IMG/VR virus record: IMGVR_UViG_3300020446_000006
Span: 1-64,000 of that record
Reading direction: 5' to 3' (one strand)
Source: a virus
Length of the DNA: 64,000 nt
This document shows, in pieces, positions 27,748 through 42,314 of this stretch. Both the position numbers and the translations under genes were made by a program. The stretch's first letter is position 1; the number at the start of each line of letters is the position of its first letter. The notes beneath the pieces are model-generated. The model was given only the letters and a program-made list of their open reading frames with translations. It was not told where the DNA came from and ran no database searches.

Positions 27748-27755
27748 TATTTATA
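27748..27755 (-). promoter_or_regulatory. T4-type late promoter box (fibre operon)
   Basis: Exact TATAAATA on the minus strand about 47 bases before the start at 27701, in the divergent gap before the enzyme island. It would drive the fibre genes at 27701 down to 18916. Confidence 0.75.
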
Positions 27756-27773: not shown

Positions 27774-27784
27774 TATAATAAATA
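27774..27784 (+). promoter_or_regulatory. Putative promoter of the enzyme island
   Basis: Plus-strand TATAATAAATA, about 30 bases before the first island gene. It contains both a sigma70-like TATAAT and AATAAATA, one mismatch from the late octamer. No convincing -35 is visible, so a late or middle type of promoter is as likely as a host sigma70 one. Confidence 0.4.
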
Positions 27785-27813
27785 GTAATGCATGTCAACT
27801 CAAGGAGAAAAAA

Positions 27814-28668
27814 GTGGATAGACAAACACGTATCAAAAAGATGTTTTATGGTTGGGATGATGAAATGGATATTATGCGTGATATCCAAAAATGCCAAAGA
27901 AACTGGGATTACTCTAAAGAAGTACATCATGAAATTAGAGACTATCTATTATGGACAGCGTTAAATGCGCCATCAAAACAACATGAGGCTTATTACGATG
28001 TCTATTGGTCTACTGATCGCGACGTTATACAAGAGTGTTCTCGTTATACGTGGGGATGTACACACAGCCGAAATCCTCCTTCGACATGGAGAAATGCACA
28101 AGCAAATGCAAACATGTATATGCTTTTTGTTGCAAAAGAACCGGATACAAATCAAAACTGTAATGCAGATGGTACAGAGAAATCTAATAAATCTTCAGCT
28201 CGATGGGAAAATGCATATGTAAGTATCGGTATCGCAGTTGGATTAGTACTTAGAGCTGCCGCAAAATATGGATTCGCCACTGGTTGTAATAAAAGTCATG
28301 GCGATTTAAATGGTGATAAGTTTTGGGAAAAAAAATTAGGTATCTTAGAAGAAGTCGAAGCAGGTGAAAAAAAGATAGCATACGGTATTGGTATCGGATA
28401 TCCTAATGAACATCGACCTCGTTGGGAATCTGATGATCTTGAGTTGGCTTTAGGTGCTGGAAATGGTAGCAATTTGGCAACTGATACAAATCTTACAGAA
28501 AATGAAAAAGGTAAACCATACAGACATATTAAAATTATTAATGTCGCTGAACATGCAGGTGAAACTCTCTTAGATCCATATGGTAATAAGCACGAAATTC
28601 CTGATGTAGCTGAAATTAAAATTAATACTATGCGTAAAAGAAACATTGAGGCTATAGAAATAAAATGA
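27814..28668 (+). CDS. Nitroreductase-like protein 1
   Basis: 284 residues from a GTG with a GGAG site 6 bases before it. The segments LWTALNAPSKQHEAYYDVYW (the 'aPS..N.qPw' FMN-binding region, altered) and SIGIAVGLVLRAAAKYGFATGCNKS in two parts (the 'iA...l.l.A.e.G.....c' helix) mark the FMN-dependent nitroreductase fold. This copy is longer than the usual 200 or so and divergent. First of three adjacent members and first gene of the island; the next start overlaps its stop (ATGA). Expected role: flavin-dependent reduction or oxidation of an island substrate. The substrate is unknown, and cofactor binding is inferred from the fold alone. Confidence 0.65.
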   Translation: MDRQTRIKKMFYGWDDEMDIMRDIQKCQRNWDYSKEVHHEIRDYLLWTALNAPSKQHEAYYDVYWSTDRDVIQECSRYTWGCTHSRNPPSTWRNAQANANMYMLFVAKEPDTNQNCNADGTEKSNKSSARWENAYVSIGIAVGLVLRAAAKYGFATGCNKSHGDLNGDKFWEKKLGILEEVEAGEKKIAYGIGIGYPNEHRPRWESDDLELALGAGNGSNLATDTNLTENEKGKPYRHIKIINVAEHAGETLLDPYGNKHEIPDVAEIKINTMRKRNIEAIEIK

Positions 28669-29336
28669 GTGTGTATGACATTTTAAAAAAAAGAAAATAT
28701 GTACTAGATTACGAAACGCATGCAGAAATAGATAAAGAATTAATTATAGATCTTTTACAAAAAGCATGGAAAGTCACTCCTTCGAAAAATAATTTTATGC
28801 CTTATAAGGTTCATGTAATAGGACCAGAACGTAGAAAATTAAAAGAAAGTATTTTTTTAAAAAGTTTAAAACATGAAGGTGCAGCAGACAATATAGATGT
28901 TATTGAAAGATATGAAAACCGTGGAAAATTACCTAATTATAGAAATATTCGGTCATGTTCTTATCTTTTAATTTTTACGTTAAGACAAGAAACTGATCCA
29001 AATCCATTTCAAAAATGGTTATTTGAACAGGGACATAACTATCCTGCAATGCGTAATGTGGAAGAGTGTTATGGAGATGCGTTACTAGAAATGGGAATGT
29101 TTTCAACCGCCTTTGGAGCTATGTGTTTAGAACATGATATCGACATTGCTCCTGTTGGCTGTTATCCTAAAGATTTAAAGGATTGGTGGGATGTACCGTT
29201 TATAAAATACCCGCCAATAGGTTTACTAACGGTTGGGAAGGGAAAATATTACAGACAAAATCCTGCATTTCCTGGACGCGAAAAAGATGATTGGAAACCA
29301 AACTTTAGCAAAGTGGTTAATATAGAGAATATTTAA
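28665..29336 (+). CDS. Nitroreductase-like protein 2
   Basis: 223 residues. MSVYDILKKRKYVLDY corresponds to the N-terminal 'RrSvR.y' of nitroreductases, KAWKVTPSKNNFMPYKVHVI to the 'aPSa.N.QPw.f.vi' loop, and LLEMGMFSTAFGAMCLEHDI to the core helix before the conserved Gly-containing C-terminal strand (IGLLTVGKG). About the usual family length. It is a near paralogue of the next gene, with which it shares MSVYD at the start, and it abuts it without a gap. The canonical Asn is present (PSKNN). Confidence 0.75.
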   Translation: MSVYDILKKRKYVLDYETHAEIDKELIIDLLQKAWKVTPSKNNFMPYKVHVIGPERRKLKESIFLKSLKHEGAADNIDVIERYENRGKLPNYRNIRSCSYLLIFTLRQETDPNPFQKWLFEQGHNYPAMRNVEECYGDALLEMGMFSTAFGAMCLEHDIDIAPVGCYPKDLKDWWDVPFIKYPPIGLLTVGKGKYYRQNPAFPGREKDDWKPNFSKVVNIENI

Positions 29337-30059
29337 ATGAGTGTGTATGATCTTTTTCAAACTCGACATCATGTACTGGAATATGCGCCAGAACCAGTAG
29401 ATGAGAGTTTACTAAATACTCTATTATGGAAAGCATGGAAGATAACACCTTCAAAAAGCAACGCTATGCCTTACAATGTAAATGTTTTAGGTCCAAAGGA
29501 TCAAATAGAAAAAAATAAGATTTATGATCAAGTTTCAGGGAATCACAAATTCTATGATGAGGTAGGACTTGATTACAATACTAAAGATAATCCTAAACTT
29601 CAAAAAGAATACAAATTTAAAGTTAATCCATTCTATGGACATGTAAAGAATAATTCACATTTGTTAGTATTTTCTTCAAGAGTTGCAAAACCAAATGCGT
29701 TTTATAAAGATACAATCTGGCGAGAAGCCCATTTTTTTGAACAGGCTGAAGAAGATCAGGTGACTGATATAGCTGAAAGTGTGAGTGTTGAATGCGGCTT
29801 TTTCGCAACACATCTTGCAGGTTTATGTAGAGAGCAAAACATCGATGTATCTTTTACCGCCTGTTTGCCAAAGAGCATAGACAAATGGAAGGCTTTTCCG
29901 TATTTATGGTATAACTATGAAAAGCAGACAGCAAAAATACATCTTATAATGAGCATCGGTTATGCCGAAAAATATAGATATGAATGGTTAACAGAAATTA
30001 GAAGAACTAAAGACGATATAAAACCAGAATTTACTGAGGTAGTGAAATTTATTAAATGA
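29337..30059 (+). CDS. Nitroreductase-like protein 3
   Basis: 240 residues, paralogue of the preceding gene: MSVYDLFQTRHHVLEY, KAWKITPSKSNAMPYNVNVL and VECGFFATHLAGLCREQNID are the same three landmarks. It begins directly after the previous stop, so the pair arose by tandem duplication and is co-translated. Divergence between the two suggests different substrates or a heterodimer, as nitroreductases act as dimers with the FMN at the interface. No partner enzyme for FMN reduction is seen in the window. Confidence 0.75.
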   Translation: MSVYDLFQTRHHVLEYAPEPVDESLLNTLLWKAWKITPSKSNAMPYNVNVLGPKDQIEKNKIYDQVSGNHKFYDEVGLDYNTKDNPKLQKEYKFKVNPFYGHVKNNSHLLVFSSRVAKPNAFYKDTIWREAHFFEQAEEDQVTDIAESVSVECGFFATHLAGLCREQNIDVSFTACLPKSIDKWKAFPYLWYNYEKQTAKIHLIMSIGYAEKYRYEWLTEIRRTKDDIKPEFTEVVKFIK

Positions 30060-30868
30060 TAAACGTTGTATGTACGAGTAAACCATGTGATGGTTTACTG
30101 TATTATAGTTATGAATATGCATCGCTGCTTGATGCAAAACTAATTATTATACCAAATCCTAAATTTACGGAACAAGACTATCTTAATTCAATTCAACACA
30201 AGTATATTCACTGTAAGAACGTTGAATTTGATTATTATGGTGGAAATGATATTACCCTTATTATGGGTAGAAGCATGCTTACACTAGCATATCGAGATTT
30301 TAAAAATTATTCTGATGACGCAAAGATGTCATTAATAGAGTTGTTTCGAAATCCACTGATATCTGTATATTCAAATAATCATCCTAATGAATATTCACTT
30401 GCACTTGAATTTTTTAAACCATCTCAAGTAACCGATCTTTGTGATCATGAAGTTTATTCAGATGGTGTTGGTGAAAACTTTATTAAGAGAATCAATTTTG
30501 ATATTTACAAAGAGTCTGTCGAAGATGTACAGTTCGAGCATCTATTTCTTGGTACAAATAACGAGTACTATCAAGCAGCACTCGATAACATGAAACCAGA
30601 TTCTCGTATTCTAGTTTATAAATATGTAGATGAAAAGAGTCTTGTAGTTCCTGTCGATAACATACTCGGCATGTTTAATACATATGTTTATACGAAGCCA
30701 TCGTTTGATCCTGCACCAAGATTATTGCAAGAAAGTATGTACTTTTCGAAGAAAGTATGTTATAATAGAGATAAAAATATAAAAGACGGCGGCAGTGTTT
30801 ACTTCAATCGTAAGATTGAAAAGCCGTCTATTGAGGTAATACAGAATGTGGCAAAGACAATACGATAA
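30056..30868 (+). CDS. GT-B-like glycosyltransferase-related protein
   Basis: 270 residues. The N-terminal half (MINVVCTSKPCDGLLYYSYE) and middle are Rossmann-like. The C-terminal part with FDPAPRLLQESMYFSKKVCY and KDGGSVYFNR resembles the C-terminal donor-site half of GT-B glycosyltransferases and of related genes in polysaccharide clusters of marine viruses. No DxD motif is visible, as expected for GT-B. The start overlaps the preceding stop (ATGA) and its own end overlaps the aminotransferase by 23 bases. Sugar-nucleotide transferase activity is inferred. Confidence 0.55.
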   Translation: MINVVCTSKPCDGLLYYSYEYASLLDAKLIIIPNPKFTEQDYLNSIQHKYIHCKNVEFDYYGGNDITLIMGRSMLTLAYRDFKNYSDDAKMSLIELFRNPLISVYSNNHPNEYSLALEFFKPSQVTDLCDHEVYSDGVGENFIKRINFDIYKESVEDVQFEHLFLGTNNEYYQAALDNMKPDSRILVYKYVDEKSLVVPVDNILGMFNTYVYTKPSFDPAPRLLQESMYFSKKVCYNRDKNIKDGGSVYFNRKIEKPSIEVIQNVAKTIR

Positions 30869-31877
30869 ATATGAAGACGCATATTTACAGATATTTGAAA
30901 ATGCGTTATCACAAAATCCAGAATCGAATGTAGAATTTTTAGAAAAAAACGTAAAGAAAGTTGCACAAAGAGAGTACGCAGTTGCATGTAATTCCGCGAC
31001 AGATGCTCTTATGTTTTCACTTGTGGCAAATGACATTGGTCCGGGTGATGAAGTACTTGTTACAAATTTTTCATGGATATCGACTGCGTCATGTATCGCC
31101 ATGGCAGGAGCAACTCCTGTCTTTTGTGATATTGATTTTGATACACGACATATCTCAATTGATAGTATCAAGAGAATGCAATCACCAAAAGTAAAGGCGA
31201 TTATATACACTCACCTCTTTGGCTCAATGTCAGATACTACAGAGATTGAACAGTGGTGTAAAGAATCAAACGTGCTCTTTATTGAAGATGCTGCACAATC
31301 GATAGGTTCAAGTTATAATGGCAAAGTTGCTGGAAGTATTGGCGATTGTAGTTCATATAGTTTTAATGCAAATAAAGTCATAAGCGGAATATCAGGTGGT
31401 GGCATGTTTATGACTGATAGTAAAGAAATGGCAGAAAAAGTAAAGAAGCTTAGGAAACACGGTAAGGATGATCGTGATGGTTATATTACTCTTGGTGTCA
31501 ATTCAAAAATGTATGTGCTAAATGCTATGATGATTGATTTCAGACTTAAACAATTAGAATCTGAAAGAGAACGCAGAAAAGAAATAGCAATGATATACGA
31601 TTCTATTTTAGATCAAACACACGAACAACCAGGCTTGATTCATAACTATCATAAATACACTTACCTGACAGATAAAAGAAATCTCTTAGATTTGCAGATA
31701 CATTATGATAGACCTTTATCGGCACATCCGATGTGGCAAGGTATTCATCATAGAGCAGATGATACACCAAATGCAAGAGAGGTAAGTCAGAAAATAGTAT
31801 CATTACCGATTGATGCGTTCATGACTGATAATGAGGCAAAAGATGTCGCAACCAAAATCTATAAAACAGTTGAATGA
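30846..31877 (+). CDS. DegT/DnrJ/EryC1-type sugar aminotransferase
   Basis: 343 residues, PLP-dependent fold type I. Landmarks: ACNSATDALMFSLVANDIGP (PLP phosphate-binding N-terminal part), PVFCDIDFDT, IEDAAQSIGSSYNGK with Asp148 that pairs with the pyridine nitrogen, and the Schiff-base Lys177 in YSFNANKVISG. These enzymes add an amino group to keto-sugar nucleotides. The family usually runs 360-390 residues; this one has a shorter C-terminal part. It has a good GAGGT site (8 bases). It is the clearest pointer to amino-sugar biosynthesis in the island. Confidence 0.88.
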   Translation: MWQRQYDKYEDAYLQIFENALSQNPESNVEFLEKNVKKVAQREYAVACNSATDALMFSLVANDIGPGDEVLVTNFSWISTASCIAMAGATPVFCDIDFDTRHISIDSIKRMQSPKVKAIIYTHLFGSMSDTTEIEQWCKESNVLFIEDAAQSIGSSYNGKVAGSIGDCSSYSFNANKVISGISGGGMFMTDSKEMAEKVKKLRKHGKDDRDGYITLGVNSKMYVLNAMMIDFRLKQLESERERRKEIAMIYDSILDQTHEQPGLIHNYHKYTYLTDKRNLLDLQIHYDRPLSAHPMWQGIHHRADDTPNAREVSQKIVSLPIDAFMTDNEAKDVATKIYKTVE

Positions 31878-32667
31878 AGAAAATTATCTAGCTATCGATT
31901 TTTATCTATCGAAGTCATGTAATAAATCTTGTCATTACTGCACTGCATGGACACTTGAGATGCGCAATCTCGATGTCGATATGGATTTTTTAAGTCGTAC
32001 TCTAGAATATTTTTCTCCGTACAAGGCACGCATACAGTTATTAGGCGGCGAACCAGGTCTTATTAAAAACCTAGATGAAGTTGTTGCTGAGATCAAGAAG
32101 CATAAGAATCTTGTACCATCTGTTCTATCAAATTCCTTTGTTCGTAAGCGTTATCCACATATGCTCGAAGACCCAGAGATTCTATATCAAGAACACTTAG
32201 TCTTAGATTTCTATGAAGATAAGATTGAGAAGCTCGGTAACTTTGATTTCTTTGAAGAGAACGATCTGAACAATTACAATATCATTATCATGACTCCAAA
32301 CTATTTTAAGTACCGAGAGAAATATGACTTATCGATTGTAGACCATAAGAATACACAGTTTAAGGCATTCAATTCTCGCTCACCTAATTGGACAGAAACA
32401 AAGCAAGCACCTGAGTTCGATCGTCGTATGTGCGCAGCATTTCCAAAAGTACCGGTTGTTGACTTCGAGCTTCAAAAGATTCGACACTGTAGTAAGAAGG
32501 TAATTAAAGGCTCTCGTCAATATGCAGTAACAAAAGAGAATATCGATAAGATGATGAACTTTGAATTGTTTCGTTTCGAAGAGTATTGTAAGAGGTGCAC
32601 AGAAGATATTGAAAAAAGATCGCACGATCAGATACTGAGGATAATGGAAGCTGGTGCAGTCATATGA
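31843..32667 (+). CDS. Radical SAM enzyme with C-terminal Cys cluster
   Basis: 274 residues from ATG 31843, chosen because GAGG lies 6 bases before it; an ATG at 31831 is also in frame. The [4Fe-4S]-SAM motif is Cys26-x3-Cys30-x2-Cys33 (CNKSCHYC), followed by LGGEP at 67-71. Four further Cys (197, 216, 249, 252, the last two as YCKRC) could hold an auxiliary cluster as in SPASM-type proteins. It overlaps the aminotransferase by 35 bases. It could modify a sugar (dehydration, epimerisation or C-methylation) or a peptide. Substrate unknown. Confidence 0.88.
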   Translation: MSQPKSIKQLNEENYLAIDFYLSKSCNKSCHYCTAWTLEMRNLDVDMDFLSRTLEYFSPYKARIQLLGGEPGLIKNLDEVVAEIKKHKNLVPSVLSNSFVRKRYPHMLEDPEILYQEHLVLDFYEDKIEKLGNFDFFEENDLNNYNIIIMTPNYFKYREKYDLSIVDHKNTQFKAFNSRSPNWTETKQAPEFDRRMCAAFPKVPVVDFELQKIRHCSKKVIKGSRQYAVTKENIDKMMNFELFRFEEYCKRCTEDIEKRSHDQILRIMEAGAVI

Positions 32668-33407
32668 GTAAAAAGTATTTGATAGCTTCTGGTTGCAGTT
32701 GGACTGATGCAAATTTTAGTTCAGAATTTGACCGGTCAATAGATTGTAGTTGGCCTAAATGGCCAGAAATACTAGCAGGCAAATTGTGTATGAAGTCAAT
32801 CAATTTAGGCTATAGTGGTTCAGGTCAGGAAGGAATATACTCTAGAGCACTAGACAAGATTTCTTCATTTGATCCAAAAGACATTGGACTTGTTATCGTT
32901 GGATGGTCACAGTGTCAAAGAAGAGATTTTGAATATGAATTAATGCATGACAAAGACGAATCTCTTTGTTGGTCAAATGAAAGAGTCGACCCTAAGGGAG
33001 ATCTATATTATTATATTCGAAGAACTCTTAGGTATATGTACAGTCTACAACAGGTCTGTGAAAGCTTAAATATACCATATAAACAATTTCAAATGATACC
33101 TTTATTTACACATTATATCTACCAAGCACGTGAGTATGGTATTAACTTTGATCATACAATTGGACATTTACGAAAAGCTATGCCTAATAGAATAGATGCT
33201 GTTGGCTATTTGGTGGAGTCACCTTATTGGGATTTAATTAACAAAGAGAATTTTATAGGATGGCCGTTAATAGATGAGGGAAATGGATTCAATATTCAAG
33301 ATAAATTTGTAAAAAATGATTTAGATTTGACTGTATCTAAAGAAGATGTACATCCTAACGAAAAAGGTCACAGGTTAATAGCAGAAAAAATTTATGAATA
33401 TCTTTAG
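32664..33407 (+). CDS. SGNH-like hydrolase
   Basis: 247 residues. Block I is SGCSWTD with Ser12 as the likely nucleophile (GCS in place of GDS); block II Gly lies in NLGYSGSGQEG; block III GxN is replaced by GWSQ near 80-83; the C-terminal catalytic Asp/His appear as DVHPNEKGH (Asp228, His230). This is the SGNH (GDSL) esterase/acetyltransferase-associated fold, but with the oxyanion Asn missing. It overlaps neighbours by 4 and 14 bases. It may add or remove an acyl group on the island's product. Confidence 0.75.
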   Translation: MSKKYLIASGCSWTDANFSSEFDRSIDCSWPKWPEILAGKLCMKSINLGYSGSGQEGIYSRALDKISSFDPKDIGLVIVGWSQCQRRDFEYELMHDKDESLCWSNERVDPKGDLYYYIRRTLRYMYSLQQVCESLNIPYKQFQMIPLFTHYIYQAREYGINFDHTIGHLRKAMPNRIDAVGYLVESPYWDLINKENFIGWPLIDEGNGFNIQDKFVKNDLDLTVSKEDVHPNEKGHRLIAEKIYEYL

Positions 33408-34884
33408 TATTGCACTCGGCCCACATGATCAAAATACATATGATGGCTCTTTTCATAATCAAATAGAACGATTTAGTAGAAAAAAGCACAACGTACCATG
33501 GCATCATGACGTGTATCCACATCATTCTGAATTGACAAGAATGAACCGTGATGATAACAGATACATGATGAAGTTTTATAATGAGTATTGGAAACCAGAA
33601 GATCATGAAATCTTTTGTTTTACCACAACAGTCGGTGGTATGAAGATGCTTCGAAACGGTAATCAAAACATTGATCAAGATTTTTTAGATTTTAAACCAA
33701 AAAAACTGTGGGATTATTTTCGAAAAGATAACATATACTATATCGATCATCATCAGTCGCATGCAGCATATGCCTTCTTATCTTCTTGCTTTACAGAGTC
33801 AGATATCTTATCGATTGACGGTCGAGGCTGGCATTATAACTGCGTCTTCTTTGATAAGAACGGAAACATGACAGATCTATCTGATAAGATGGGTATCGGT
33901 ATACTTTGGGATTATTTTTCGAAAGCAGTCGGGTTCGGTCCTCTTGGTGCTGGAAAGTTAATGGGTCTTGCTGCACATGGCAGTTATTCTCCTGAATTTC
34001 ATATGATTATTGATTACTATTCGAATAATAATTTTAATTTTCCTGAGTTTGATATATCGAAGTTTAAACAAGAAGACATCGCGTATACGCTACAGTATGC
34101 AACTCAAGAATTAGTTAATGAACATGTGATACCTTTACAGTCATGTGATAATATATGTGTTGCTGGTGGCGTGGCATACAATGGCTATATGAATGAAGAG
34201 TTTACAAAGTACTACAGTGGTGTACATGTACCACCTGCACCAGGAGATGAAGGACAATCACTTGGCACTTATATGCATGCCGATTATGTTCTAAATAAAA
34301 ATAAACATGTGCCGAATGTGTATGCTGGAAAAGAATATACATTCGATGAAGGTGATGAGATTACTTCTCGAGAAGTTGCAGAAGCAATCGCAAATGGTAA
34401 AATTGTCGGTTGGTTTAACGGCAAATCCGAATCAGGTAATCGAGCACTCGGCAATCGAAGTATACTTGCAGATCCTCGTAATCCGAATATCAAAGACATT
34501 ATTAACCATACGATAAAACAAAGAGAAGATTTTAGACCATTTGCTCCAGCAGTACTTGAGCATCATGCACAAACATTCTTTGACACAAATCAGCCAAGTC
34601 CTTATATGTCTCGTATCATGCCGGTAAAATCAGATAAAATACCGGGTGTAACACATCTTGATAACACTGCGAGAATACAGACCGTAAGCCGTATACAAAA
34701 TGAAAATTTCTATAGACTCATTGAAGACTTTTATCAATATACCGGCATGCCGATGTTATTGAATACGAGTTTTAATTGTAAAGAGCCGATAGTTGAAACG
34801 CCTGAAGATGCGATCAACACATTTAACAGAACTAAACTTGACATGTTGGTAATTAATGGACGTAGTGTGCGTAAAATGGGGTGA
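33394..34884 (+). CDS. NodU/TobZ-type carbamoyltransferase
   Basis: 496 residues. Landmarks: DHHQSHAAYAF (118-128, the metal/ATP-site His cluster), GAGKLMGLAAHG (185-196), the 'laGGva.N' strand (CVAGGVAYNGYMNEE), and the YrdC-type C-terminal motif GNRALGNRSILADPR. These enzymes use carbamoyl phosphate and ATP to make a carbamoyladenylate and transfer the carbamoyl group to a hydroxyl. The N-terminal GPHDQNTYDG is degenerate compared with the usual 'GHd.sA' start. Possible acceptors are a sugar hydroxyl or, as reported for some phages, 5-hydroxymethylcytosine in DNA. No hydroxymethylase gene lies in this window. Confidence 0.88.
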   Translation: MNIFSIALGPHDQNTYDGSFHNQIERFSRKKHNVPWHHDVYPHHSELTRMNRDDNRYMMKFYNEYWKPEDHEIFCFTTTVGGMKMLRNGNQNIDQDFLDFKPKKLWDYFRKDNIYYIDHHQSHAAYAFLSSCFTESDILSIDGRGWHYNCVFFDKNGNMTDLSDKMGIGILWDYFSKAVGFGPLGAGKLMGLAAHGSYSPEFHMIIDYYSNNNFNFPEFDISKFKQEDIAYTLQYATQELVNEHVIPLQSCDNICVAGGVAYNGYMNEEFTKYYSGVHVPPAPGDEGQSLGTYMHADYVLNKNKHVPNVYAGKEYTFDEGDEITSREVAEAIANGKIVGWFNGKSESGNRALGNRSILADPRNPNIKDIINHTIKQREDFRPFAPAVLEHHAQTFFDTNQPSPYMSRIMPVKSDKIPGVTHLDNTARIQTVSRIQNENFYRLIEDFYQYTGMPMLLNTSFNCKEPIVETPEDAINTFNRTKLDMLVINGRSVRKMG

Positions 34885-35530
34885 CAAGTTTAGTCACGAG
34901 CATGTCAATCGATTGTATCGAATGGTATGTAAAAACTTTCATACTGATTTTAGATTTGTATGTCATACAGATAATCCTGAAGGGATACATAATGACGTAC
35001 ACATTATACCTTTGCCAGACTATGATCTCGAAAAGTGGTGGTGGAAATTAGCGCTATTCGAAAACATTTCAGAAACTCAAATATATTTAGATTTAGATGT
35101 CATAATACAAAAAGACTTTACACATTTTCAAGATTATGTCGTAGAAGATAAATTATGTTTAGTAAAAGCATATTGGAAACCATATGTAAGTGATGTAAAG
35201 TTTGAATTCGATGTCGATATCAATTCATCTATTATGATATGGAAAGGCGATCTTCGACATATATGGAAAGATTACGATGTAGAATACTGCAAATTTAAAT
35301 ATGAAGGAATAGATAGATATCTTTACTATGACAAAGGTGAACATTTAGTGTATATACCAGAAGGTGAATTATATTCTCGTAGATATGGTTTAGATTGGGA
35401 AAACTTTAATTTATTTGGGCTCGAAGATAAATTATACAAAGACGAAGACAAAACAATCTGTATCTTTGATGGGTGGAAATTAAGATTTGGAGATGAGGCA
35501 TATGATGGATTCGAAGAATACTATAATTGA
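34856..35530 (+). CDS. GT-A glycosyltransferase 1
   Basis: 224 residues. GT-A fold with DLD (residues 79-81 in QIYLDLDVII), the metal-binding DxD that follows the Rossmann-like N-terminus (DVVCVKWGDKFSHEHVNRLY). Similar to GT8/GT32-type transferases, with short N-terminal length. It overlaps the carbamoyltransferase by 29 bases. The ATG has no strong Shine-Dalgarno, so coupling to the upstream gene is likely. It could transfer the island's sugar to an acceptor; which one cannot be told. Confidence 0.7.
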   Translation: MDVVCVKWGDKFSHEHVNRLYRMVCKNFHTDFRFVCHTDNPEGIHNDVHIIPLPDYDLEKWWWKLALFENISETQIYLDLDVIIQKDFTHFQDYVVEDKLCLVKAYWKPYVSDVKFEFDVDINSSIMIWKGDLRHIWKDYDVEYCKFKYEGIDRYLYYDKGEHLVYIPEGELYSRRYGLDWENFNLFGLEDKLYKDEDKTICIFDGWKLRFGDEAYDGFEEYYN

Positions 35531-36191
35531 TCCTATATATTTTAATGTCTGGTGGGAAGCAATACAAAAAGGCTATGACGCTAAGACTTTGTTGTATAGT
35601 ATAGGCCCTGATCAGTTAGAATCAAAAAACCATTTGTTTAAATTGTTAACAACACCATTGCCTGGAAAAAGAGAATACTGTCCTGCTACAGAATTATATT
35701 ACAAAAAAGATCTACATATACAGATTTATGGCGGCTGGTTTGGATATCCTTTAATTGACATGCTTGTTGATACCTTTTCAAATATATCTAGAATTACTAA
35801 TATCGATATAGACTCGAAAGCTTTAGATCTTTGTAGGAAATTTACTGTGGAAAAAAATCTAAGTGATATAGTATTTTTTAAAGAAAGAAATGTTGCTGAT
35901 ATTATTGAGACATCACATAATAAAGACAGAGACATTCGACTTGTAATTAACACATCATCTGAACATATGCCCGATTTACCTGTATTGATACAAAATAAAA
36001 CATATACAGATAATTGTGTCTTTGCGCTACAAAGTAATAATATGTTTCATGTTGTAGATCAACATATAAATTGTTCTAACAGTTTAAACGAATTTGTAGA
36101 GAAAACAGGACTGACAAAAATATTTGTTGCTGACACATATAAAATGCAGAATGGTTATGAGAGATATACTGTTATAGGAAATCATGAATAG
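35505..36191 (+). CDS. SAM-dependent methyltransferase-like protein
   Basis: About 229 residues from ATG 35505, preferred because GGAGATGAGG lies directly upstream (GAGG with 6-base spacing); starts at 35502 and a TTG at 35487 are also in frame. The SAM-binding Rossmann part is IQIYGGWFGYPLIDML, then the ITNIDIDSKALDLC acidic strand and VFFKERNVADII. The glycine-rich loop is IYGGWFG. It lies between two glycosyltransferases with 26- and 8-base overlaps. Methylation of the island's sugar is plausible. Confidence 0.65.
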   Translation: MDSKNTIIDPIYFNVWWEAIQKGYDAKTLLYSIGPDQLESKNHLFKLLTTPLPGKREYCPATELYYKKDLHIQIYGGWFGYPLIDMLVDTFSNISRITNIDIDSKALDLCRKFTVEKNLSDIVFFKERNVADIIETSHNKDRDIRLVINTSSEHMPDLPVLIQNKTYTDNCVFALQSNNMFHVVDQHINCSNSLNEFVEKTGLTKIFVADTYKMQNGYERYTVIGNHE

Positions 36192-37029
36192 AACAATCAT
36201 AAGTCTTTATATTGACATACCAAAAGAAAACCTGGTATCTCATCATGAATCAAAACTGAAGTTTAACGATAACCACGCCTGGCTCGTAGATAAACAAGAA
36301 GAGTATGCAGATAAAATCGGTGTAGATTTTTCTCATTTCGAATATGAAGATGGCTATGAGGAATATCGTGATTGGTTTCAAAAAGAATATCCTGAAGTTT
36401 CTGAATATAACATAGTAAATTTCTTTAAGATCAAATTACTATATGATATGACTGAGTTATATGATGAGATTCTGTATCTTGACATTGATGTGATTCCTGT
36501 AACAAATGAAAACTTCTTTGATGTGTTTGATTTAAACAAAGGATTCGCCATACTGACAGGAACTGCAAGATCGCAAAGAGCATGGATTAATCCACTAACA
36601 GAGGCTGTAGTAGGCAGACATGGAGTAAGATCTCCTTTAGCAAAATATTGGAATACCAAATTAATGTTATCGATGGAAGGTCATAGTAGAGATTCTGAAG
36701 TATTCAATACAGGTATTATCGGCATTACTAGTAAGCAACTTAAAGAACTTGACTATTTTTCAGAATTTAGATCATTACTTGATTATATGACAGAGATACA
36801 AAACAATAGTGAGATACCCGATAACCTCAGAAAGCTGTGTGGTTACGATAACGAGACGATATGGGGCTACAAAACTTTACTTAAAAATCTTTCTTATCAG
36901 GAGCTCGGTGAGTATTGGCATGTGTTTATGGATAACCATAGCTTTGTACCAGAAAAAGCAAAGTTGGTGCACTGTGTAAATAAAGATTTTGATTATGTGA
37001 GAAACTGGTGTGAAAAGAATAATATTTAG
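36184..37029 (+). CDS. GT-A glycosyltransferase 2
   Basis: 281 residues. DxD at residues 100-102 in EILYLDIDVIP; the N-terminal strand (TIISLYIDIPKENL) and C-terminal KLVHCVNKDFDYVRNW (a His in the metal-site region) resemble GT8-like transferases. It has an AGGAAA site 5 bases upstream. It shares the LYLDxDVIP motif with the two other GT-A proteins of the island, so the three probably descend from one ancestor by duplication and assemble successive links. Confidence 0.7.
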   Translation: MNRTIISLYIDIPKENLVSHHESKLKFNDNHAWLVDKQEEYADKIGVDFSHFEYEDGYEEYRDWFQKEYPEVSEYNIVNFFKIKLLYDMTELYDEILYLDIDVIPVTNENFFDVFDLNKGFAILTGTARSQRAWINPLTEAVVGRHGVRSPLAKYWNTKLMLSMEGHSRDSEVFNTGIIGITSKQLKELDYFSEFRSLLDYMTEIQNNSEIPDNLRKLCGYDNETIWGYKTLLKNLSYQELGEYWHVFMDNHSFVPEKAKLVHCVNKDFDYVRNWCEKNNI

Positions 37030-37606
37030 CATATGGCAAGACACAGACTGGCGTGACTATAAAGATCTGTTAGTAAACAAGCAACGAGAATACGCAGAGT
37101 TTTGTGATGCCGATTATCATTGTATCGAGTATGACAGCTTTGAGTTTAGTCGATTACAGTTCGAAAAACTTAACTGGGCAGATCATTATTTAGATTTTTA
37201 TGATGAAGTATTATATCTCGATTTAGATGTAATACCTCGAAAGAACATGTCATTCTTTGAAAAACATGATCTCAATACATTTTGTGTTCATTATACAATG
37301 AAGCCTGATTGGAAGATTAAAGCGAAAAACGATGCGCTAGGCTATCAAGGTAAGAATAAGATTGCAAATACAGGTGTTTTTGGTTTAAATCAAAATCTTA
37401 AGGGTATGCTAACAAAGGAACATAACTTCGATAACAACGAAGTTTTTGTATCATACCTAATTGAAAAGGATAAAATCCCTTGCACTGAAATTTCAGGTGC
37501 GTGGAACTTTATCCTTGATAAAAATTATCGTAAGTATAGTGAAGCTCACTATTTCTTACATGTATCTAATAAAGATTTTATTTCCTACCCGCTAGAGCGA
37601 TACTAA
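37010..37606 (+). CDS. GT-A glycosyltransferase 3
   Basis: 198 residues, GTG start inside the end of the preceding gene. DxD at residues 71-73 in EVLYLDLDVIPRKN, with a following segment (WNFILDKNYRKY and HYFLHVSNKDF) like that of the neighbour. Shorter than its paralogues. It is the last gene of the island and its end overlaps the next minus-strand gene by 29 bases, so two opposite transcripts meet here. Confidence 0.65.
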   Translation: MKRIIFSIWQDTDWRDYKDLLVNKQREYAEFCDADYHCIEYDSFEFSRLQFEKLNWADHYLDFYDEVLYLDLDVIPRKNMSFFEKHDLNTFCVHYTMKPDWKIKAKNDALGYQGKNKIANTGVFGLNQNLKGMLTKEHNFDNNEVFVSYLIEKDKIPCTEISGAWNFILDKNYRKYSEAHYFLHVSNKDFISYPLERY

Positions 37607-38078
37607 GAGCGGCATGAGTTGCTTCCATAAAATCTTTAGACTTACGAAGTGCTGCCTTCGCATCACGATTTTCTGATTCTTTAATAATCGGTTGCTCGAA
37701 TAGTTGAAGCTTATATAAGAACAAGGCTTCTTTATCTTTTTTAGAATTAAAATCATATGTAAGAAGCGTCTTAGAGACCTCTTGCCAAAAGTCATTTGTA
37801 AATGTTTTACCGTCGTAAAGAATACCTAGATCAGTTGCAGTTTTTATAGCCATCGACTGAAATGCTTGGGTTTGTAACTTAATATTCTTATATGTTTGTT
37901 CGTGTAAATCATCTAAAGTTATAAGCTCTAGAAGTTCAGTATAATGTGGATTGTCATCTTCTGCAACAATGTGAAAAGGTATGGTTCTCATATCATCTTG
38001 GTGTTGCCACAAAGATTCGATAACTGTTCTATTATCGTCAATAAAGTATGCATTTAAAAATTTTGCGTTTTCAACCAT
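37578..38078 (-). CDS. Conserved virion-region protein, function unknown
   Basis: 166 residues, helical and soluble, no signal peptide or membrane segment. The start and stop overlap neighbours (1 base with the fibre-type protein upstream; 29 bases with the island's last gene on the other strand). Sequence landmarks are MVENAKFLNAYFIDDNRTVI and IIKESENRDAKAALRKSKDF. I do not recognise the family. Its position at the end of the fibre/baseplate operon suggests an assembly factor or a small fibre component. Confidence 0.55.
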   Translation of the reverse strand: MVENAKFLNAYFIDDNRTVIESLWQHQDDMRTIPFHIVAEDDNPHYTELLELITLDDLHEQTYKNIKLQTQAFQSMAIKTATDLGILYDGKTFTNDFWQEVSKTLLTYDFNSKKDKEALFLYKLQLFEQPIIKESENRDAKAALRKSKDFMEATHAALSIALAGRK

Positions 38079-39019
38079 TATGTTCTCTCCACTTTTAGCG
38101 AGTATGTTGTGTCTGTGTTAATCGTGCCGCTAGGCTGAAGCTGTGAAATGTATTCGTCTGGATCTGTATCGCTCGGATCTGTTACTCGATCTGCTTGAGT
38201 CGAGCTTTCAAAAAATGTATCAATCATAACAGATCCTTTTGTTGTTCCGGAACCATTAATATTAAACCGAAGCATATAACCAGGTTCAGCATAAATGTAA
38301 TGACGAATCAATCTTTGGAAGTATGTATCAAACTCTGTAGTTGTCATATGTCTTAATCCGACAGTTCCGTCAATAATCAAAGGTGTACGATAGGTTTGTG
38401 CAAATCCTTTAATTCTTTTTAAATAATAAGTGTTGATTGTATTTGTATTTGTGAACTGTTCGCCTGCTCCGGTAAGCAAAGGATAATTGCCAAACCCAAC
38501 AGATCTTGTATCTGTATAAACAATTCCTAAGTTGTCTTGATTTGATTCAGATAGCGTTGTACTAATACGATAAGAACCTGCTGCTAATGCCACAAAATTA
38601 TTTCCAGTTACCATACCACTTACTACAGGATCGATAAATGTATCGACAACATCTTGTTCAGTCATTTCATGAACGCCATTATTGCCATCAACTCGCACAG
38701 GCTTTAGTGTATAAGCCGGCTTTGTTTCTGTAGTATCAAAGCTTTGTTGTATTTTATCATAAAATACATCATCTATAACAACAGGGTCTGTAGCTGTACC
38801 AAAGGCTGTATCACTTAAATCCGCGGATGTGCCAGTAAAATATCTTCGATCTCTCATCTGTGGTGAGATACTTCCACCTGAAGACACAACAACAAGAGAT
38901 ACAGTTGGATTAGAGTAATATAGATAACCAATCTGTCTAAGTTGTTTTTGATATTCACTAGATGTACATTCTTTAATTCTAATATTGTTATCTGATACTA
39001 GAGGTCGATAAACTGTCAT
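38078..39019 (-). CDS. Beta-rich structural protein
   Basis: 313 residues, beta-type sequence with no enzyme motif. Landmarks: MTVYRPLVSDNNIRIKECTS, QIGYLYYSNPTVSLVVVSS, VEMTEQ-type turns, and a repeated VGLRHMTTTEFDTYF near residue 225. It lies between two members of the MARK-fibre family and the unknown gene at 37578, and belongs to the peripheral baseplate/fibre block. Precise role unknown. Confidence 0.55.
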   Translation of the reverse strand: MTVYRPLVSDNNIRIKECTSSEYQKQLRQIGYLYYSNPTVSLVVVSSGGSISPQMRDRRYFTGTSADLSDTAFGTATDPVVIDDVFYDKIQQSFDTTETKPAYTLKPVRVDGNNGVHEMTEQDVVDTFIDPVVSGMVTGNNFVALAAGSYRISTTLSESNQDNLGIVYTDTRSVGFGNYPLLTGAGEQFTNTNTINTYYLKRIKGFAQTYRTPLIIDGTVGLRHMTTTEFDTYFQRLIRHYIYAEPGYMLRFNINGSGTTKGSVMIDTFFESSTQADRVTDPSDTDPDEYISQLQPSGTINTDTTYSLKVERT

Positions 39020-39029
39020 AATAAAACCT

Positions 39030-39707
39030 TTATGCTACTGTTGGATCGTTACTCGTAGATAAAAAATATCCGTCTAATACTATAGTTCCGGTTTCATCTT
39101 TTACTGTAAATCGCTTTGCATTATCAAGTTCATATCGATCGCTATCCATAATTAATTTTGTAACTTCTAAATTTGTTATGGTTGCACTATCAATCACTGC
39201 GCTATCGATATCTGCAAACCCAGCTGTCAAACGATTTACTCTTGCCGAATCAATTGCCAAAGATGTAATTGTTGCATTTGAAATTGTGGCGCTATCAATA
39301 GTTAGAATTGCTCCTGGATCTACGCCGATACTATCGACATTAATTGTTGCAAATCTTGCACTATCTGCAGTCATCAGTCCGGTTACGTCTAGATTCCGAA
39401 TAGTCGCTGAGTCTATCGTAGCACTGTCTGCTGTGAGAGTACCAACTCGAAGTCTTTTAAAGGTTGCAGAATCTCCGTCAAATCCTGTAACTAGCAATGT
39501 GCCTGGAGGAGTACCGAATAGTTTATTGTTAATACTATCAAAACTTATAGCCAACTGATTCATAGCAGAAACTAAGTTTGAATCTGAATTTAGAAAAAAG
39601 GCAGCATCTAAATCATCAAGATCGCCCATAAAATCAGACATGAGATTTGTCTTGGCCATAAAGGTGCCAATTGCATCTACGAGATCTACGTGTATTTTTC
39701 TAGCCAT
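39030..39707 (-). CDS. MARK-type fibre-like protein A
   Basis: 225 residues. Start MARKIHVDLVDAIGTFMAKT, MGDLDDLDAAF and DSNLVSAMNQLAIS are shared with the next gene (39719), a tandem duplication. The second half is built of degenerate 'DSATI..' beta-strand repeats (DSATIDSATIRNLDVTGLMT, DSATISNATITSLAIDSARV) like those of the long fibres, and probably forms a beta-helical shaft. It belongs to the fibre/baseplate block. Confidence 0.6.
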   Translation of the reverse strand: MARKIHVDLVDAIGTFMAKTNLMSDFMGDLDDLDAAFFLNSDSNLVSAMNQLAISFDSINNKLFGTPPGTLLVTGFDGDSATFKRLRVGTLTADSATIDSATIRNLDVTGLMTADSARFATINVDSIGVDPGAILTIDSATISNATITSLAIDSARVNRLTAGFADIDSAVIDSATITNLEVTKLIMDSDRYELDNAKRFTVKDETGTIVLDGYFLSTSNDPTVA

Positions 39708-39718
39708 TTTGTATTCCT

Positions 39719-40540
39719 TTAGATACTATCTATATCGAGTTGGATAGCCGCAAAATAATTTTCTGTACTTGTTGAATCAGTTAATAAGAAAGGCCTTGCG
39801 TGTTGAAATGTAATCGGTCCTTGAGAATCATTTAAAGTCAATCGTTTAACTCCTGTTGTACCGATTGTCGCCTTTGTAATATTAACACCTGAATCGCCAC
39901 CACTATCCGATATAAACTGACCAATAGTAATTTTACTTAATACTAATGCACTGTCAACTGTAACATCTTCACCTTTCATTGACAAATTTTTAAATCTTAT
40001 AGTACTAGTACTATCAAGAGCAGTAAGCCTTCCTATGACTCCGCTGTCTCCAACATACAAGCGAGTCATAGACATACTGTCTGGATAATTATCTAATTCT
40101 ATTACAGTTAAATTTCTAAATCTGGTACTGTCAGAGAAATAATCATGACTGATACCACCATCAGAATCACCGAACCATAAATTTGCTGCTTGCCCTTGAA
40201 AATCACCGGGACCTGGCATAGCGCTATCATAATTGTATAAAGACCTAACTGTAATTTTATCAAACTTGCCAGAGTCTGCACCGATTTTTGCTTTAAATCC
40301 AGTGATCTTTTCGGTACCATTAATTAAGCCATCAAGTATGTTTTTAAGATTATCAGCAAAGAGATTCATGCCGCTGACGAGATTTGAATCTCGATCAATT
40401 AGACCTGAATAAGGTGGATCTCCAGGATCAAATGTAGTATCAAGATCATCTAGATCTCCGATATAATCGGACATCTCGTTGACTTTTTGTCTCCATACGT
40501 CAATTGTATTTGCTAAATTGATTGTGACTTTACGTGCCAT
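39719..40540 (-). CDS. MARK-type fibre-like protein B
   Basis: 273 residues, paralogue of the gene at 39030 in its first 100 residues (MARKVTINLANTIDVW, IGDLDDLDTTFD, DSNLVSGMNLFADNL). The C-terminal part has shorter beta repeats with frequent DS (GGDSGVNITKATIGTTG). Stop and start overlap the small gene upstream by one base. It probably assembles with its paralogue in a fibre stalk. Confidence 0.6.
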   Translation of the reverse strand: MARKVTINLANTIDVWRQKVNEMSDYIGDLDDLDTTFDPGDPPYSGLIDRDSNLVSGMNLFADNLKNILDGLINGTEKITGFKAKIGADSGKFDKITVRSLYNYDSAMPGPGDFQGQAANLWFGDSDGGISHDYFSDSTRFRNLTVIELDNYPDSMSMTRLYVGDSGVIGRLTALDSTSTIRFKNLSMKGEDVTVDSALVLSKITIGQFISDSGGDSGVNITKATIGTTGVKRLTLNDSQGPITFQHARPFLLTDSTSTENYFAAIQLDIDSI

Positions 40541-40740
40541 TATAACTTCTCTAAGATCTGTTTCATCATATGTTTGAGCTCAGACACGTCAGTCTTTAAC
40601 TCTTGGAGTTCCGCCTGTTTTTCTTTCCATGCCTTCTTTCTGGCTCTTGCTGCTTCTATCTCTGTCGAGTTTGTATTCAATACAACACCGTCTTCATTTT
40701 TAATTAGGCCTTGATGGCCGTCAACATTTTTCCATTTCAT
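40540..40740 (-). CDS. Small coiled-coil protein
   Basis: 66 residues, with a long amphipathic helix from about residue 27 (EIEAARARKKAWKEKQAELQ then ELKTDVSELKHMMKQILEKL). It overlaps neighbours by one base on both sides, so it is translated with them. A short coiled-coil spacer or trimerisation element of the fibre/baseplate complex is plausible. Confidence 0.55.
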   Translation of the reverse strand: MKWKNVDGHQGLIKNEDGVVLNTNSTEIEAARARKKAWKEKQAELQELKTDVSELKHMMKQILEKL

Positions 40741-42314
40741 TATACACTCAATGCGATCGCTCTTAAATCCTTAATAATCGGTACCTTTGCTGAATTTGTT
40801 GATGTCATTACAATTTTAAGCTGAAACTTTGTAAATGCAGGAAGCTGGCCACCCTGTCCGCCAATTAGATATTCATATTCTCTAAAGACGTTTTGATTTT
40901 CATCAGGAGGATTGTTTCCTTCTTCTGCTACATATGTCCATTGTTGTACATTAATTGCATCTGTTTCAGTCGCAACTCTCCAATACAATTTCAAACCTGC
41001 TGCTTTAGGTCTATGTGCTGTAATAAAGACTTTAAGTCCTACTGCTGAATTTGCGAGTGTTGTAACTTTAGTAATATGCTTTGCCGCAGAAGACCCGCGC
41101 TTTGCATCTTCTTCATCTACAAAACTCATTGGAACATTAAATCCACTTGTTGCAGCAGAGTCTTGATTGTCAATAATGTTATCTACTAGAGTAAGAGAAG
41201 ATCTTTGTAAATCAATCATAGGAGCAACAAACTCATTGTCTGTTGCCATTCCCATTCTCATTGTTGCAGTTTTTGCTCCTACAGCAATTTCATCTTCTGC
41301 AATGCTGTCACATGCAACTACATAGTTATGCTCTAAAGCATAGTTATTTTTGTTAAGATTGATTGATGTAAATCCTGCATCAACCTGATAAGGTGATTCG
41401 GTACCAGCAAATGACTTACCACTAGTGCCTTTATATGAAGCAAAGACATTTGTGCCGTTTGGTTTTAGTAAAGATATGTGTGGCCAAACAAGTGAGTACG
41501 GAATATTCTTTGTGCTTTCGACCAAAGATCCTCCACCAATAGCACTTGAATCTGCTGTTGAGTTTGCTTTAAATTCAAATCCACTCGCATCTATCTTTGT
41601 AATTGTATGATCACCGTTAACTGTTAAACCACCAACTGTCGCAGCACCGGTAATTGAGACTGTATCATTTACTTGCAAGCCGTGATTTATATTAGTGACT
41701 CTGACATCACTATCACCTGCAAACGTTTGAATCGGATTTGGATTTAGAAGTTTGCGTGGAACACTGGCATTATTTAAGAAAGCCGTAGCAGATCCTGGTG
41801 TAAACTTCGCTCTTATTAATTCAAATTTAAGATCTTGTTTTTGATCGGCAGAAAATGTAGCACCGTTTTGAGAGTAGAATAAAGAACCAAGATTAGGATT
41901 AATATTTACTCGAGCAGAGGCGGAACCTATAATTTGCTCATCGATCTCTGAAATATAAATCTCATATTCTGGTGTTTCTGCATATACAACAATAGCAAAA
42001 TCTGATAGACCCTTCAGATAAATAGGCTCATCGAATTCAAATGTTGTTGCAACAGTCGCATCAGCAGAAGTATTTACATCGCTATACTCGACATAGACTG
42101 TGGATCCAGGTACAATCTCCACATCAGAAGGCATGCCGTTTCTCATCGGTCTAAGGTGTAAAGAAACAGGAAGCTGTAAGTTGGCTGTTGGCGTAAATGT
42201 AGATGCAAAATAGAGATTTATTTTTGTTGCATATATACCTCGAGCCTCGTCAACATAGAAAGACTGAGCAATTGGATTTTTATTTCTCTTATAACCGAGA
42301 CTATTTAAGGACAT
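40740..42314 (-). CDS. Large baseplate/fibre structural protein
   Basis: 524 residues from ATG 42314. I prefer this start over a GTG at 42323, because AGGAG lies 8 bases before the ATG and overlaps the GTG. The start codon shares one base with the preceding stop (TAATG). N-terminus: LNSLGYKRNKNPIAQSFYVD; beta-type body. Landmarks: GLQVNDTVSITGAATVGGLT and LKPNGTNVFASYKGTSGKSF. The type is common in marine T4-like phages next to the DUF4815 protein. Structural role, exact position unknown. Confidence 0.7.
   Translation of the reverse strand: MSLNSLGYKRNKNPIAQSFYVDEARGIYATKINLYFASTFTPTANLQLPVSLHLRPMRNGMPSDVEIVPGSTVYVEYSDVNTSADATVATTFEFDEPIYLKGLSDFAIVVYAETPEYEIYISEIDEQIIGSASARVNINPNLGSLFYSQNGATFSADQKQDLKFELIRAKFTPGSATAFLNNASVPRKLLNPNPIQTFAGDSDVRVTNINHGLQVNDTVSITGAATVGGLTVNGDHTITKIDASGFEFKANSTADSSAIGGGSLVESTKNIPYSLVWPHISLLKPNGTNVFASYKGTSGKSFAGTESPYQVDAGFTSINLNKNNYALEHNYVVACDSIAEDEIAVGAKTATMRMGMATDNEFVAPMIDLQRSSLTLVDNIIDNQDSAATSGFNVPMSFVDEEDAKRGSSAAKHITKVTTLANSAVGLKVFITAHRPKAAGLKLYWRVATETDAINVQQWTYVAEEGNNPPDENQNVFREYEYLIGGQGGQLPAFTKFQLKIVMTSTNSAKVPIIKDLRAIALSV

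What the first reader, a model, noticed from the sequence alone, without database searches (positions are those of the whole stretch)
27814..37606. Twelve-gene enzyme island embedded in the tail-fibre region
Seen: twelve plus-strand genes with 4-35 base overlaps (or no gap) and no internal promoter box, flanked on both sides by minus-strand fibre genes. Products: three nitroreductase-like proteins, GT-B-like and three GT-A glycosyltransferases, a DegT aminotransferase, a radical SAM protein, an SGNH hydrolase, a NodU-type carbamoyltransferase and a methyltransferase. Known: such enzymes occur together in amino-sugar and antibiotic-glycoside pathways. Inference: it makes and attaches a heavily modified sugar or related group, maybe to fibres, host surface glycan, DNA or a small molecule. 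The combination with three flavin-type reductases in a virion-gene region is new to me.
Basis: partly seen in the sequence, partly recalled or inferred. Interest (0 to 1): 0.82.

Follow-up and report, generated by a model that had tools for sequence, protein, structure and literature searches.

The report
Phage sugar-tailoring operon among tail-fibre genes
A marine virus related to those infecting the abundant ocean bacterium SAR11 carries, among its tail-fibre genes, a 12-gene operon that looks built to make and attach an unusual decorated sugar; many related viruses carry the same operon with interchangeable parts, and its product is unknown.

Summary
Twelve overlapping plus-strand genes (27814-37606) sit between minus-strand fibre genes of a T4-like marine myovirus (78-kb IMG/VR record) related to pelagimyophages. 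The host is inferred, not shown. The site is the known pelagimyophage 'host recognition cluster' (PMC7029224), and isolate Mosig EXVC030M has a homologous operon. Among 126 non-redundant viral loci, 107 carry at least five of its families; DegT-rSAM-carbamoyltransferase-MT order holds in 72 of 73. Nitroreductases, SGNH hydrolases, split radical-SAM/SPASM pairs and a PP-loop ATPase are swapped in and out. No stops and dN/dS of 0.02-0.28 in the seven genes tested argue against decay; GT-B and radical-SAM families were found in sampled bacteria only on phage-like contigs. A T4-type late-promoter motif precedes the operon (24 of 48 loci; shuffles 4.1, maximum 11). Nearest solved relatives of the radical SAM (BtrN), DegT (scyllo-inositol transaminase) and carbamoyltransferase (TobZ) act on cyclitols or aminoglycosides. 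Best reading: a late-expressed operon that aminates, carbamoylates and methylates a sugar and attaches it, marginally more likely to virion fibres than host LPS. Acceptor and product are inferred. DNA modification is weakened, not excluded. New variant of a known kind.

The parts
27748..27755 (-). T4-type late promoter motif TATAAATA (reads TATTTATA on +) for the leftward fibre genes, just upstream of the start at 27701
   Evidence: nine of ten exact minus-strand copies in the window lie within 70 bases upstream of a minus-strand gene start
27777..27784 (+). Late-promoter-like AATAAATA (7 of 8) 29 bases before the first island gene; AAGGAG ribosome site at 27803-27808
   Evidence: [TA]ATAAATA upstream of the first island gene in 24 of 48 loci, shuffles mean 4.1, max 11
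27814..28668 (+). NTR1: nitroreductase-fold flavoprotein (284 aa)
   Evidence: Pfam 0.002; profile to 8cqt 3.5e-5; in 54 of 107 related islands
28665..29336 (+). NTR2: nitroreductase-like (223 aa)
   Evidence: family profile to 3ge6 1.7e-8
29337..30059 (+). NTR3: nitroreductase-like (240 aa)
   Evidence: Pfam 0.0095 alone, 11 of 23 family members match, best 4.7e-9
30056..30868 (+). GTB: GT-B-fold glycosyltransferase (270 aa), a core gene
   Evidence: AlphaFold model pLDDT 93.5; GT-B enzymes (HepE, WbnH) among the top fold matches; sampled bacteria match only on phage-like contigs
30846..31877 (+). DegT/StrS sugar or cyclitol aminotransferase (343 aa), core; SFNANK has the expected PLP lysine
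   Evidence: Pfam 1.7e-76; nearest solved: glutamine-scyllo-inositol transaminase 4.6e-46, QdtB, perosamine synthase
31831..32667 (+). Radical SAM enzyme with four-cysteine auxiliary (twitch-like) domain (278 aa), core
   Evidence: CxxxCxxC C30/34/37 and C201, C220, C253, C256 invariant in 22 sequences; best fold matches BtrN, SuiB, SpeY
32664..33407 (+). SGNH hydrolase-like protein (247 aa), exchangeable cassette
   Evidence: Pfam Lipase_GDSL_2 1.2e-4; invariant G10, S12, D228, H230
33394..34884 (+). NodU/TobZ-type O-carbamoyltransferase (496 aa), core
   Evidence: Pfam 9.3e-66, PHROG Nol-like carbamoyltransferase 3.8e-105, TobZ 5.4e-48
34856..35530 (+). GT-A glycosyltransferase 1 (224 aa)
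   Evidence: PHROG glycosyltransferase 1.9e-10
35487..36191 (+). SAM-dependent methyltransferase-fold protein (234 aa), core
   Evidence: profile to spermidine synthase 3.2e-5 and MJ0882 4.8e-5
36184..37029 (+). GT8-like glycosyltransferase (281 aa), core in most
   Evidence: Pfam Glyco_transf_8 5.1e-6, above cut-off
37010..37606 (+). GT-A glycosyltransferase 3 (198 aa), diverged relative of the previous gene
   Evidence: 29% identity, same family cluster
37578..38078 (-). Conserved convergent neighbour (166 aa, unknown); marks the right edge of the island
   Evidence: homologue in 54 of 107 island loci and in island-less phage C48C1
27357..27701 (-). L-shaped tail fibre assembly-like protein; left edge of the island
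   Evidence: phrog_3304 3e-14; 62% identical in C48C1

Best explanation
The island is one late-transcribed operon that builds a modified carbohydrate and attaches it to an acceptor reachable from the cytoplasm. Proposed route: a radical-SAM dehydrogenase of the BtrN/SpeY kind oxidises a hydroxyl of a sugar or cyclitol to a ketone. The neighbouring DegT enzyme turns that ketone into an amine, so no NDP-sugar dehydratase is needed. The TobZ-type enzyme carbamoylates another hydroxyl and the methyltransferase caps a further group. The nitroreductases and SGNH hydrolase are exchangeable tailoring modules. The GT-B and GT-A enzymes assemble and transfer the glycan. Because of the late-promoter motif and the position between fibre genes, the likeliest acceptor is the phage's own fibre or other virion protein, with host LPS core close behind. 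Shown by computation: operon structure, enzyme families, order conservation, purifying selection in seven of the genes, late-promoter motif, cassette exchange. Inferred: every reaction step, the substrate and the acceptor.
For: Enzyme families and active-site residues. BtrN is the top fold match of the radical SAM (1.4e-4; SpeY 8.4e-4), and four invariant cysteines in the auxiliary domain resemble BtrN rather than MoaA, whose auxiliary cluster has three (PMC9012708). DegT's best solved match is glutamine-scyllo-inositol transaminase; the carbamoyltransferase's is TobZ. DegT and radical SAM are consecutive core genes in 86 of the 89 loci that have DegT. A 470-aa radical SAM protein is fused to the carbamoyltransferase in 14 fetched loci, some of them overlapping or near-identical contigs. 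Late-promoter motif in 24 of 48 upstream regions against 4.1 expected, max 11. No hydrophobic segment strong enough to suggest a membrane span, so no flippase or Gtr-type partner in the operon. Purifying selection, dN/dS 0.02-0.28 and no stops in the seven island genes compared. A second cluster of GT25 x2, methyltransferases x2, sulfotransferase and GT8 at about 70-76 kb of the same record.
Against: No enzyme activity, product or acceptor is known. The BtrN match is moderate (TMq 0.44, 15% identity; model pLDDT 83 with a low-confidence loop at 29-39), and SPASM peptide maturases and viperin score close behind, so the radical SAM could act on a peptide or nucleotide. Nearest-solved-structure arguments are biased by what has been solved. 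Some complete islands lack one or more core genes in this gene call. The published inference for glycosyltransferases at this site is host O-chain modification (PMC7029224).
Confidence: 0.42

Rival explanations
1. Host surface conversion: the operon alters the lipopolysaccharide of the infected cell from the cytoplasmic face, blocking adsorption by competing phages or rebinding of released progeny.
For: Published inference for pelagimyophage glycosyltransferases (PMC7029224). GT8 and GT25 are LPS-type families. A second cluster adds a sulfotransferase and O-methyltransferases.
Against: No membrane enzyme, lipid-carrier transferase or flippase in the operon. The late-promoter motif points to expression with virion genes, late for exclusion, although SAR11 infections are slow (own knowledge).
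Confidence: 0.33
2. Phage DNA hypermodification: the island makes and transfers groups to DNA bases to resist restriction.
For: Phages are known to hypermodify DNA bases, including with sugars (own knowledge); radical SAM, aminotransferase and glycosyltransferase combinations occur there.
Against: The isolate with the homologous operon has no thymidylate-synthase/dCMP-hydroxymethylase family member although controls ring. No Tet/JBP match, but that search had no positive control. Only one of more than 100 SAR11 genomes encodes restriction-modification (PMC7029224). The operon sits among fibre genes, not DNA-metabolism genes.
Confidence: 0.07
3. Peptide or small-molecule pathway: radical SAM/SPASM, nitroreductases and the PP-loop ATPase modify a peptide or make a diffusible compound rather than a surface glycan.
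For: Split radical SAM + SPASM pairs are common in related islands (33 and 29 of 38 complete islands). A small domain is found fused to DegT or near it. SuiB and other peptide maturases are close fold matches.
Against: No obvious precursor peptide was noticed (not searched systematically). Several glycosyltransferases per island. DegT is firmly of the sugar/cyclitol type. The window island itself lacks the split pair.
Confidence: 0.1
4. Captured host genes in decay, or a binning or assembly chimera.
For: The island has lower G+C than the window average (0.341 against 0.379).
Against: The same order in over 100 contigs and in a cultured phage; no stops, dN/dS 0.02-0.28 in seven genes; GTB and radical SAM profiles match, among 247 genomes of the order and about 300-400 of the phylum, only one MAG, on a contig carrying the island gene run.
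Confidence: 0.02

Closest known systems
Pelagimyophage host recognition cluster (HRC; Zaragoza-Solas et al. 2020, PMC7029224)
   Same: Same location between VrlC and the neck genes, fibre genes mixed with glycosyltransferases, radical-SAM cassettes noted, high variability.
   Different: The main text does not name nitroreductase, carbamoyltransferase or aminotransferase and, in the passages read, does not describe an ordered enzyme operon; it reports that late-promoter prediction failed, whereas the motif is clear in this window.
Pelagibacter phage Mosig EXVC030M, 60990-71305 (MT647606)
   Same: Homologues of all core genes, same orientation opposite to fibre-region genes; carbamoyltransferase 59%, radical SAM 63%, NTR1 58% identical.
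   Different: Extra split radical SAM + SPASM pair, different positions of NTR1 and SGNH, one GT of another family; its genes are annotated singly and the part of the genome announcement read does not discuss the operon.
Butirosin/nebramycin-type aminocyclitol tailoring (BtrN, DegT aminotransferase, TobZ)
   Same: Radical-SAM dehydrogenase-like fold, DegT aminotransferase and O-carbamoyltransferase in one gene set.
   Different: No cyclitol synthase in the operon; sequence identity is low; no evidence for an antibiotic; embedded in a phage virion region. These activities come from different antibiotic pathways, not one.
Virion glycosylation in mycobacteriophages (Che8, Rita; cited in PMC11256854)
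   Same: Phage-encoded glycosyltransferases linked to glycans on phage capsid proteins.
   Different: Here a tailoring pathway accompanies the transferases, and virion glycans are not shown.

Membership tests
Pelagimyophage host recognition cluster | Lies between VrlC and the neck genes of a T4-like marine myovirus | tested here: met
   Window 42314-46300/40740-42323 match Mosig VrlC; 14763-15959 and 15964-16719 match Mosig neck proteins; the island lies between
Pelagimyophage host recognition cluster | Fibre genes mixed with glycosyltransferases, variable content between close relatives | tested here: met
   sister contig L008 (88% DNA identity over 13 kb) has a split radical SAM + SPASM pair and a 48%-identical DegT between GTB and rSAM
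Pelagimyophage host recognition cluster | Host is SAR11 | not tested
   Host of this contig unknown; portal is 67% identical to Phage C48C1 (host not given), 52% to Mosig
BtrN-type twitch radical-SAM dehydrogenase | CxxxCxxC cluster motif plus four cysteines for an auxiliary cluster | tested here: met
   C30, C34, C37 and C201, C220, C253, C256 invariant; cluster binding itself not shown
BtrN-type twitch radical-SAM dehydrogenase | Fold closest to BtrN/SpeY rather than MoaA, viperin or SPASM enzymes | tested here: inconclusive
   BtrN first (1.4e-4) but SuiB 1.9e-4 and a viperin-like enzyme 7e-4 close; TM about 0.4-0.5
TobZ/NodU O-carbamoyltransferase | Carbam_trans N and C domains and the HHxxHAA region | tested here: met
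   (HHQSHAAYA aligned with TobZ HHLAHAASA)
Nitroreductase superfamily | FMN-binding nitroreductase fold | tested here: inconclusive
   Profile matches 1.7e-8 and 3.5e-5; single proteins below the Pfam cut-off; FMN binding and substrate untested
O-antigen conversion (Gtr-type) module | Membrane glycosyltransferase and flippase partners | tested here: not met
   No island protein has a hydrophobic segment typical of a membrane span; partners elsewhere in the genome not searched
Phage DNA hypermodification system | Base-hydroxymethylating synthase (thymidylate-synthase family) in the genome | tested here: not met
   Absent in the Mosig record (draft, CheckV 76% by its authors) and in the own 78-kb fragment, with positive controls

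The most novel reading that the evidence does not exclude
A virus lineage maintains, without a detected bacterial source, a modular late-expressed pathway that oxidises, aminates, carbamoylates and methylates a sugar by aminoglycoside-type chemistry and puts it on its own fibres, with exchangeable radical-SAM, nitroreductase and PP-loop cassettes giving each phage its own surface glycan.
Probability: 0.25. Interest if true: 0.85.

Novelty: new variant of a known kind. Interest (0 to 1): 0.55.

Why it matters
SAR11 is among the most abundant cells on Earth and its large phages devote many genes in the fibre region to unassigned enzymes. An ordered operon with a cultured carrier (Mosig on HTCC1062) turns 'assorted glycosyltransferases' into a defined pathway hypothesis testable by mass spectrometry. 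If the glycan sits on virions, it would be a phage-made surface chemistry that may affect adsorption; if on host LPS, a competition mechanism among pelagiphages. The GT-B and radical SAM families appear phage-specific in the genomes sampled and may be new enzymes.

Tried and rejected
Close DNA relatives in GenBank phages: none. NTR3 alone as a probe of viral contigs: no confirmed relative, so the carbamoyltransferase, NTR1 and radical SAM were used. Recent host transfer: GTB and radical SAM profiles found in sampled genomes of the MAG's order and phylum only on one MAG contig; two other MAG contigs carry phage neighbours. The NTR1 search of the same order found nothing but had no positive control, so it is not used. 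PDB sequence profiles for GTB, SGNH and GT8-like families gave nothing. Tet/JBP search uninformative because controls did not ring. Literature searches for the combination found no description, within an open-access library only. The PP-loop family resembles NAD synthase/QueC/GMP synthase only weakly and was not assigned. My gene calling was mechanical (longest ORFs), so per-island presence counts are approximate and fused genes are undercounted there.
Full report
WHAT IS THERE. The window is part of a 78,038-base IMG/VR record of a T4-like marine myovirus. Portal, sheath, terminase and baseplate genes match T4-type PHROGs. The portal is 67% identical to 'Phage C48C1' and 52% to Pelagibacter phage Mosig EXVC030M. 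The host of this contig is unknown; SAR11 is an inference from its relatives. Twelve plus-strand ORFs fill 27814-37606 with overlaps or no gaps, between minus-strand fibre-region genes. Enzyme calls range from firm (DegT, carbamoyltransferase, radical SAM, GT8) to profile- or structure-supported (nitroreductases, methyltransferase, GT-B, SGNH) to homology only (the last GT).

LOCATION. The island lies between a VrlC homologue, here split into 42314-46300 and 40740-42323, and neck genes homologous to Mosig's. This is the defining site of the pelagimyophage 'host recognition cluster' described by Zaragoza-Solas et al. (PMC7029224), who noted glycosyltransferases and radical-SAM cassettes there and proposed host O-chain modification. 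Phage C48C1, the closest by portal, has homologues of both edge genes but only two genes between them: one reads as a glycosyltransferase-like and one as a 2OG-dioxygenase-like protein (my reading of the sequences, not a family search). So the site holds alternative contents.

CONSERVATION. Scans of viral contigs with the carbamoyltransferase, NTR1 and radical SAM proteins returned 80 (of 196), 47 and 80 (of 94) loci. After removing redundancy, 107 of 126 loci carry at least five island families. These loci were gathered with island genes as probes, so the count measures order and co-occurrence, not how common the island is among such phages. Consecutive core pairs are rSAM>Carb 92, Carb>MT 91, DegT>rSAM 86, GTB>DegT 71 and MT>GTA2 65, and DegT<rSAM<Carb<MT holds in 72 of 73 loci with all four. 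In 38 islands bounded on both sides, the median is 13 genes and 10.5 kb, and 79% of neighbouring genes overlap or abut. Exchangeable modules are the nitroreductases, SGNH, a ~220-aa radical SAM plus ~120-aa SPASM pair, a 470-aa radical SAM, a PP-loop protein and extra GTs. The isolate Mosig has a homologous operon at 60990-71305.

CASSETTE EXCHANGE AND SELECTION. Contig L008 is 88% identical to the window over 31861-44879 and 84% over most of GTB. Between them, however, it has a split radical SAM + SPASM pair and a DegT only 48% identical in protein. Synonymous distances across neighbouring genes range from 0.16 to 1.6, which suggests gene-level exchange. The seven island genes compared have no stops and dN/dS of 0.02-0.28. 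The NTRs, GTB and DegT were not in that comparison.

ORIGIN. The GTB profile matched 1 of 247 genomes of the order of a Pelagibacter MAG and 1 of 398 of its phylum, the same MAG each time. The radical SAM profile gave the same single genome. That MAG's contig carries only the island gene run. The two other MAG contigs found also carry phage edge genes. So no chromosomal source was seen in the sample. Absence elsewhere is not shown.

EXPRESSION. TATAAATA occurs ten times on the minus strand of the window, nine of them within 70 bases upstream of a minus-strand gene start. Divergent copies sit in the 112-base gap before the island: exact for the fibre genes at 27748-27755 and 7 of 8 for the island at 27777-27784. 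Across related islands, [TA]ATAAATA lies within 80 bases of the first island gene in 24 of 48 (shuffles 4.1, max 11). Mosig encodes a late sigma factor and a late-promoter accessory protein. Late transcription is therefore likely but not measured. One exact motif inside gene 4 leaves an internal promoter possible.

CHEMISTRY. The radical SAM model (pLDDT 83) finds BtrN first, then SuiB, a viperin-like enzyme and SpeY. Its auxiliary domain keeps four cysteines, as BtrN does; MoaA uses three (PMC9012708). BtrN oxidises an aminocyclitol alcohol to a ketone. DegT's nearest solved relatives are glutamine-scyllo-inositol transaminase and QdtB. The carbamoyltransferase is closest to TobZ of tobramycin-type antibiotics. 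Fusions of the 470-aa radical SAM to the carbamoyltransferase in 14 fetched loci (some overlapping or near-identical contigs) link these activities. I therefore propose oxidation, transamination, carbamoylation and methylation of a sugar or cyclitol, with transfer by the GT-B and GT-A enzymes. Each step is inferred.

ACCEPTOR. No island protein has a hydrophobic segment typical of a membrane span, so a complete O-antigen conversion module is not present in the operon. Late control and position favour a virion protein. The LPS-type GT families, the published inference, and a second cluster (two GT25, two methyltransferases, a sulfotransferase, a GT8 at about 70-76 kb of the record; a comparable set in Mosig at 124.8-130.7 kb) keep LPS close. 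Virion glycans linked to phage transferases have a precedent in mycobacteriophages (PMC11256854). DNA modification is weakened by the absence of a thymidylate-synthase-family gene in Mosig, but that genome is a draft, Mosig has many 2OG oxygenases and the Tet/JBP search was uninformative.

VERDICT. The kind of thing (glycan genes in the host recognition cluster) is known. The ordered, cassette-bearing amino-sugar-type operon within it appears undescribed in the literature I could search. It is a new variant of a known kind, with the product and acceptor open.

Noticed in passing
G000 contig positions about 70.1-76.2 kb (L207:10112-16220, outside the window): A second, minus-strand glycan-modification cluster: two GT25-like, two methyltransferase-like, a sulfotransferase and a GT8-like gene; Mosig annotates a comparable set at 124832-130666.
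   Followed up: partly
40740-42323 and 42314-46300 (-): The VrlC baseplate homologue, one 2045-aa ORF in Mosig, is two overlapping ORFs (1328 and 527 aa) here.
   Followed up: partly
window minus strand: 954, 4244, 12000, 16761, 18915, 27755, 48939, 52228, 60540: Exact TATAAATA late-promoter motifs right upstream of virion genes, although PMC7029224 reports that late-promoter prediction failed in pelagimyophages.
   Followed up: partly
L020:1593-4508, L024, L040, L041, L057, L059, L064, L065, L069, L070, L074, L188, L193, L195: Natural fusions of a ~470-aa radical SAM protein to the carbamoyltransferase.
   Followed up: yes
L042:6631-7905 and others; stand-alone form L192:9675-9977: A ~70-aa domain of unknown function (IYDYIVEK...KLKIAFNKFY) is either fused to the C-terminus of DegT or encoded as a separate ~100-aa protein nearby; absent from the window.
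   Followed up: partly
L054:4658-5521 and family (alignment A6): A PP-loop ATPase family (SGGxDSA, C-terminal CxxC) recurs in 40 related loci (13 of 38 complete islands); weakly like NAD synthase/QueC, function unassigned.
   Followed up: partly
L082:4702-10955 (Mosig 54701-60954, minus strand): Opposite the Mosig operon lies a run of dioxygenases, acetyltransferase, peroxiredoxin, FMN reductase, aminotransferase and a fatty-acid desaturase-like gene.
   Followed up: no
L203 and L204 (genome contigs MAGs labelled Rhodobiaceae and Gammaproteobacteria): Phage contigs with this operon and its phage edge genes appear to have been binned into bacterial MAGs.
   Followed up: partly
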